DNA of 56,444 nt from a virus. Below are positions 18,844 through 33,037 of the stretch, piece after piece. A program made the translations under genes and the position numbers. Location: positions 1 through 56,444 of IMG/VR virus record IMGVR_UViG_3300042319_001750; one strand, given 5' to 3'. Under the pieces are notes generated by a model. It was not told the DNA's origin. It saw only the letters and a program-made list of their open reading frames with translations, and made no database searches. Within the stretch, counting starts at the first letter, position 1. Every line of letters starts with the position of its first letter.

Positions 18844-19427
18844 CCTCGCTCCTTGGTGACCCAGCACCACTCTGGGTAATCCGTCGAGTCCTCCTCATAG
18901 GCATCGACTGGGAGTTGGACCTTCAAGTTGAGGCGGCACCCACACTGCGAACAGTTGTGGAGCCGGTCAGCCATCTCTGGCTTCCGGGCTTCGGGCAAGA
19001 TTCCGTCCATCGCGGCTACTTCACTGAGTCGCTTATCACATGACGAGCACCCTCCGGCCCTGACGTTGCGCGGGCAGGTAGCGCAGATCGAGGCTCGATG
19101 GTTGACGATCAGCATGGGGGCGAGATTCGCTCCCCCAAGAATCCAGTTCTTGGCTGTGGTGAAGAATCGGCCAAGCGTCTCAAACGTCACACCAATGGTT
19201 GGGGTCGCTGTTGTGCTCTCACAGTATGGCGGCTTCAGCCCCATCTGCTCACAGACGGCGCTCTCGATCGCTTCATCCGACATAGGGTCCCTCCCGTTGG
19301 AAGAGAGGAATCCACGGACGGCCCCTATTAGTTTCTGAGCGGAGAAGTTGGTGATGTAGCTCCCCGTCACCGGGTCGCGCCAGCGCCATTTTCCATTGGG
19401 GGTTTGGGCGTTGTGATTGATCTTCAT
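18840..19427 (-). CDS. Cys-rich zinc-binding protein coupled to the giant gene
   Basis: 195 aa from the ATG at 19427, which overlaps the stop of the giant gene (ATGA); the longer frame to 19511 lies inside that gene. It contains CATCPRNVRAGGCSSC and CSQCGCRLNLK, probably two zinc knuckles, followed by an acidic C-terminus. The N-terminal 40 residues (NGKWRWRDPVTGSYITNFSAQKLIGAVRGFL) are conserved-looking. It is last in the late operon. Function unknown. Confidence 0.75.
   Translation of the reverse strand: MKINHNAQTPNGKWRWRDPVTGSYITNFSAQKLIGAVRGFLSSNGRDPMSDEAIESAVCEQMGLKPPYCESTTATPTIGVTFETLGRFFTTAKNWILGGANLAPMLIVNHRASICATCPRNVRAGGCSSCDKRLSEVAAMDGILPEARKPEMADRLHNCSQCGCRLNLKVQLPVDAYEEDSTDYPEWCWVTKERG

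Positions 19428-33037: not shown

What the first reader, a model, noticed from the sequence alone, without database searches (positions are those of the whole stretch)
19424..33037. 4537-aa single ORF, about a quarter of the window
It is one of the largest phage proteins I would expect to see. It combines a membrane-active Ala/Gly region, variable Pro/Ala linkers, zincin-like modules, long helices and a polyvalent-protein C-terminus. It is probably loaded into the capsid and threaded into the host with the DNA. Its linkers may allow sequential unfolding.
Basis: partly seen in the sequence, partly recalled or inferred. Interest (0 to 1): 0.7.

Follow-up and report, generated by a model that had tools for sequence, protein, structure and literature searches.

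The report
Giant phage protein likely injected whole
A virus of an unknown bacterium devotes a quarter of its sequenced DNA to one 4,537-residue protein that carries a protein-cutting module otherwise seen in proteins short-tailed phages inject ahead of their DNA, plus exchangeable segments that differ between relatives; it is a new, unusually large example of a known kind of protein.

Summary
The ORF is real: 4,537 aa, ATG to TGA, on the minus strand at 19424-33037 (24% of the record). Two complete orthologues (4,255 and 3,897 aa) and one truncated one, from other metagenomes, keep the frame and gene order, so it is not an assembly error. No Pfam, PHROGs or NCBIfam family covers it. One module is identified: residues 2930-3200 are a zincin metallopeptidase with intact ligands (H3049, H3053, E3105). 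Its only credible matches are phage ejection proteins: T7-like internal core proteins, N4-like virion RNA polymerases, a crAss-like protein, and the solved phiM1 ejectosome protein. A second copy (about 2157-2332) has lost its zinc ligands in every orthologue that reaches it. The chassis is constant (3,456-3,486 aa); nearly all length difference lies in three Pro/Ala-rich 'bays' carrying different modules per virus. No RNA polymerase motif or profile match was found. Capsid location, ejection, membrane activity and sequential unfolding are inferred, not shown. The 'polyvalent C-terminus' was not confirmed: residues 3291-4537 match nothing, and AlphaFold gave no usable model. It resembles an N4 virion RNA polymerase without the polymerase, but is not a member of that family.

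The parts
19424..33037 (-). whole giant ORF, 4537 aa, ATG to TGA
   Evidence: complete orthologues L001 (4255 aa) and L004 (3897 aa), truncated L002
31238..33037 (-). N-terminal chassis, residues 1-600; 297-600 Ala/Gly-rich, possible membrane-interacting region
   Evidence: 60-71% identity to orthologues; composition; weak profile match to the Parlo giant, prob 37
28931..31237 (-). bay 1, residues 601-1369: Pro/Ala linkers with variable modules
   Evidence: 770 aa here, 385 in L001, 310 in L004, 1258 in L002
29468..30010 (-). module at residues 1010-1190, absent from L001 and L004, no database relative
29306..29389 (-). PAPLAAP tandem repeat, residues 1217-1244
27158..28930 (-). MID chassis, residues 1370-1960, function unknown
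26672..27121 (-). predicted long coiled coil, residues 1973-2122
   Evidence: AlphaFold model of A8 and coiled-coil-type profile hits; much shorter in L002
26042..26569 (-). degenerate zincin copy, residues 2157-2332; HExxH replaced by GIITH (2252-2256)
   Evidence: hhalign prob 77 to N4-like C1 and 70 to the intact copy; reversed and column-shuffled C1 controls below 0.5
25118..25720 (-). bay 2, residues 2440-2640, variable acidic/Pro/Ala linker
   Evidence: 200 aa here, 92 in L001, 37 in L004
24338..25117 (-). pre-zincin chassis, residues 2641-2900, no relatives found
23438..24250 (-). zincin metallopeptidase module, residues 2930-3200; HEATH 3049-3053, third ligand E3105
   Evidence: tblastn, hhalign prob 97.9, 96.9 and 92.6, alignment A9, PDB profile search
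23168..23437 (-). bay 3, residues 3201-3290; holds an extra insert of about 207 aa in L001
19427..23167 (-). C-terminal chassis, residues 3291-4537; includes the best-conserved part (3700-4537), predicted helical, no relatives outside the family
   Evidence: 61-77% identity over most of it; no matches; AlphaFold pLDDT 38, unusable
18840..19427 (-). next gene, 195 aa from the ATG that overlaps the giant's stop (ATGA); possible zinc ribbon
33085..34104 (-). 339-aa gene just upstream; candidate smaller ejection protein (inference)
   Evidence: 53-56% identity in the other three viruses, same order
34986..35918 (-). 310-aa conserved gene, candidate head-to-tail or tail protein (inference)
   Evidence: 80-84% identity; no structure match

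Best explanation
The ORF encodes a giant internal virion protein of a probably short-tailed phage. It is made late, packed in the capsid in few copies, and pushed through the tail into the host before or with the DNA. Its layout (N-terminal Ala/Gly domain, long linker, middle domains, zincin, large helical C-terminus) resembles the N4 virion RNA polymerase, but a non-polymerase region and a dead zincin copy occupy the place of the polymerase. The folded beads are joined by Pro/Ala linkers that could let them unfold one at a time. The linker bays carry modules that differ between related viruses and may be effectors against host functions. The intact zincin could cut the chain, in the head or after entry, to release parts. 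Shown: the ORF, its conservation, the zincin and its degenerate copy, the constant chassis and variable bays, no detectable polymerase. Inferred: capsid location, ejection, membrane contact, unfolding, proteolysis and effector roles.
For: Zincin hits by tblastn: Autographiviridae internal core proteins E 3e-6 to 1e-5, an N4-like virion RNA polymerase E 9e-5, crAss-like gp56 E 0.02. hhalign prob 97.9 (N4-like C1), 96.9 (T7-like), 92.6 (crAss-like); reversed and column-shuffled controls for the first two give below 1. Profile search of the PDB: the seven significant chains are gp10 (23sg), phiM1 gp48, an internal virion protein and four N4 virion RNA polymerase chains, E 1e-17 to 1e-5; with the three own sequences alone the same kinds rank first but weakly, best E 0.005. 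phiM1 gp48 (8vb2) was seen in an in-capsid ejectosome (PMC11440229). Last gene of the late operon, as vRNAP in N4-like phages and the 3,764-aa protein in Parlo. Chassis length 3477, 3486 and 3456 aa against bay totals 1060, 769 and 441. pN/pS 0.24-0.72 in every segment.
Against: No virion proteomics. Apart from the zincin, neither the chassis nor the neighbouring head genes (portal, scaffold, capsid) show detectable similarity to N4-, T7- or Parlo-type counterparts, so the short-tailed form is inferred from gene content and order. Polyvalent proteins of conjugative elements also carry zincins (PMC5512222), so a zincin alone does not prove ejection from a virion. No transmembrane peak lies in the Ala/Gly region.
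Confidence: 0.75

Rival explanations
1. It is a tape-measure protein of a long-tailed phage: large, helical, with hydrophobic and peptidase segments, setting tail length.
For: Large, helix-rich late protein; the head genes match no short-tailed phage detectably, so morphology is unproven.
Against: Only about eight genes lie between the probable capsid gene and the giant, among them an endolysin and a 1,421-aa Ig/NHL protein: too few for a long tail. It lies last in the operon. The significant zincin relatives are ejection proteins, not tape measures. Orthologues differ by 640 aa through linker bays, odd for a ruler.
Confidence: 0.1
2. It is an N4-like virion RNA polymerase too diverged to recognise.
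For: Same order of parts, gene position and zincin; the region in the polymerase's place (1370-2440, about 1,070 aa) is close to N4's polymerase domain (998-2103, PMC12633501).
Against: No motif B (R-x3-K-x5-8-YG) in the window protein or L001; MID against a 13-sequence N4-like polymerase profile gives hhalign prob 0.2; part of the region is a dead zincin; C-terminal domains do not match.
Confidence: 0.05
3. It stays in the infected cell as a cytoplasmic polyprotein that the zincin cuts into several proteins, and is not a virion component.
For: Several modules in one chain with an intact zincin.
Against: Position in the late structural operon; zincin relatives are virion-borne; N4's is packaged uncut (PMC5512222).
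Confidence: 0.08

Closest known systems
N4-like (Schitoviridae) virion RNA polymerase, gp50
   Same: Giant, last in the late operon, N-terminal domain, linker, middle, zincin (C1), large helical C-terminal domain; zincin similarity significant.
   Different: No polymerase motif or profile match; C-terminal domain, portal, scaffold and capsid not detectably related; about 1,000 aa longer than N4 gp50; dead zincin copy; variable bays.
Autographiviridae internal core protein / tetrameric ejection protein (phiM1 gp48, PM75 internal core protein)
   Same: Homologous zincin module, 40% identity over 80 residues in PM75; internal virion protein.
   Different: About 1,290 aa; the rest shows no similarity to the giant.
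Serratia phage Parlo 'DarB-like antirestriction' giant, 3,764 aa
   Same: Giant at the end of the late module of a 63-kb phage, zincin (HELVHAAT at 1195), weak N-terminal similarity.
   Different: Zincin lies in the N-terminal third; MID and C-terminal regions unrelated by profile.
Polyvalent proteins (Iyer et al. 2017, PMC5512222)
   Same: Very large multi-module proteins with zincins as hub; the N4-like zincin is described there; mosaic orthologues known (jhp1044).
   Different: No curated Pfam domain was hit here; functions of the variable modules are unidentified.

Membership tests
N4-like virion RNA polymerase | single-subunit RNA polymerase domain with its motifs | tested here: not met
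   no motif B; hhalign MID to polymerase profile prob 0.2
N4-like virion RNA polymerase | C1 zincin domain with HExxH | tested here: met
   hhalign prob 97.9; PDB E 3e-6
N4-like virion RNA polymerase | C2 helical C-terminal domain | tested here: inconclusive
   no sequence match; AlphaFold model unusable
Podophage internal virion / ejection protein | homology to experimentally seen ejection proteins | tested here: met
   zincin module only; phiM1 gp48 in the ejectosome (PMC11440229)
Podophage internal virion / ejection protein | present inside the capsid and ejected | not testable with these tools
   needs virion mass spectrometry or microscopy
Podophage internal virion / ejection protein | encoded in the late structural operon near tail and internal proteins | tested here: met
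   conserved order in four viruses; neighbours' own roles are inferred
Polyvalent protein | two or more unrelated enzymatic or binding domains in one chain | tested here: inconclusive
   zincin shown; other modules unassigned
Polyvalent protein | zincin metallopeptidase module | tested here: met
ADP-ribosyltransferase in polyvalent proteins (PF18760), for the L001 insert | match to the family model | tested here: not met
   no match at E 10; only a 30-residue tail signature shared with MT836673

The most novel reading that the evidence does not exclude
A delivery chassis with exchangeable cargo: about 3,470 constant residues carry interchangeable effector modules in three fixed bays, and a catalytically dead zincin copy positions or restrains the intact zincin that frees cargo after entry into the host.
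Probability: 0.2. Interest if true: 0.75.

Novelty: new variant of a known kind. Interest (0 to 1): 0.5.

Why it matters
If ejected intact, this would be among the largest single chains known to pass a phage tail, and its natural series of related lengths (same chassis, bays totalling 441 to 1,060 aa in the complete orthologues) would allow tests of how linkers and cargo affect translocation. The paired intact and dead zincins bear on the open question of what zincins do in ejected phage proteins.

Tried and rejected
Family scans with Pfam, PHROGs and NCBIfam found nothing for the giant. DNA and protein searches of phage records with the N- and C-terminal parts found nothing. Scans of bacterial genomes with the C-terminal and portal alignments confirmed no relative; they are pattern-based and reach close relatives only. 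AlphaFold of the C-terminal chassis failed (pLDDT 38, pTM 0.25); of the middle it was moderate (pLDDT 60, pTM 0.27) and Foldseek gave no hit below E 0.35. ART identity of the L001 insert, first suspected from its tail sequence, is rejected as unproven. L002's two extra motifs (HEELSH, an HExxxH form, and NEITH) match no zincin profile used here, so they are possible zincins only. The window module at 1010-1190 was sought in phage records and IMG/VR without success. Neighbouring genes did not match N4-, T7- or Parlo-type homologues except the endolysin, prob 86, and a 17-column match too short to weigh.

Full report
The window is an IMG/VR virus record of 56,444 bases. The ORF at 19424-33037 lies on the minus strand and reads 4,537 codons from ATG to TGA without a stop. 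At its base composition the chance of that is about 10^-64.

Orthologues. L001 (4,255 aa from its ATG), L004 (3,897 aa) and L002 (2,563 aa before its contig ends) come from three other metagenome records. Gene order around the giant is the same where the contigs reach. pN/pS is 0.24-0.72 in all segments, so the whole frame is under purifying selection. The terminase and portal are 86-91% identical between these viruses, while the giant is 60-76% identical in its conserved ends, so it evolves faster than the packaging genes. No assembly error is needed to explain it.

Anatomy. An N-terminal chassis (1-600, Ala/Gly-rich from 297), bay 1 (601-1369), MID (1370-1960), a predicted coiled coil (about 1973-2122), a degenerate zincin (about 2157-2332), bay 2 (2440-2640), a pre-zincin segment (2641-2900), the zincin (2930-3200), bay 3 (3201-3290) and a predicted helical C-terminal chassis (3291-4537). 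Removing the three bays leaves 3,477 aa (window), 3,486 (L001) and 3,456 (L004), while the bays sum to 1,060, 769 and 441 (from the lengths). Bay 1 is 1,258 aa in L002. Bay contents differ: a module at 1010-1190 is absent from L001 and L004, and L001 has about 207 extra residues in bay 3.

Zincin. tblastn against 50,697 phage records matched this module to internal core proteins of T7-like phages, a virion RNA polymerase of an N4-like phage and a crAss-like protein. Profile comparison gave prob 97.9, 96.9 and 92.6; reversed and shuffled controls for the first two were below 1. A PDB profile search returned ejection proteins for all seven significant hits. The ligands H3049, H3053 and E3105 are invariant in the alignment. 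The copy at 2157-2332 aligns with the intact one over 166 columns (prob 70) and with N4-like C1 (prob 77), but HExxH reads GIITH, GLVTH or GLLTH in the three sequences that reach it and the third ligand is lost.

Context and mechanism. Few genes separate the capsid region from the giant, and the giant is last in the operon, as in N4-like phages and in Parlo. The N4 zincin was described by Iyer et al. 2017 (PMC5512222), who suggest autoproteolysis in the head or after entry, or action on host proteins. The 2025 N4 preprint (PMC12633501) gives the layout NTD, linker, polymerase, C1 zincin, helical C2 and proposes beads-on-a-string translocation. The present protein fits that layout without a detectable polymerase. 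What the bays and the C-terminal chassis do is unknown; calling the bay modules effectors is inference. The short-tailed form is inferred from gene content and order, because the head genes match no known phage at the profile level used.

Verdict. A real, conserved, unusually large ejection-type protein, most likely a virion cargo, forming a new family by sequence except for its zincins. Mosaic orthologues and dead domains are known in polyvalent proteins (PMC5512222), so it is a variant of a known kind.

Noticed in passing
window 33037-52942, starts of 15 late genes: No clear Shine-Dalgarno sequence upstream of the late-gene starts printed, which suggests a host with non-SD initiation.
   Followed up: no
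window 52920-53825 (+) and 53822-54304 (+): Integrase-family and Holliday junction resolvase matches just beyond the terminase, so the phage may be temperate.
   Followed up: no
window 37309-41574 (-): 1,421-aa protein with choice-of-anchor D / Ig-like domains and NHL repeats, probable fibre or spike, 49-61% identical in the other three viruses.
   Followed up: no
L002:10001-17689: Bay 1 of L002 carries HEELSH (HExxxH form, as described for other polyvalent-protein peptidases) and NEITH motifs; no profile match to the zincins used here.
   Followed up: partly
L012 (crAss-like cr53_1): Annotated CDS of about 4,645 aa next to a gene with a zincin related to this one.
   Followed up: no
window 15018-15093 (+): One tRNA-Met (CAT) gene.
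   Followed up: no
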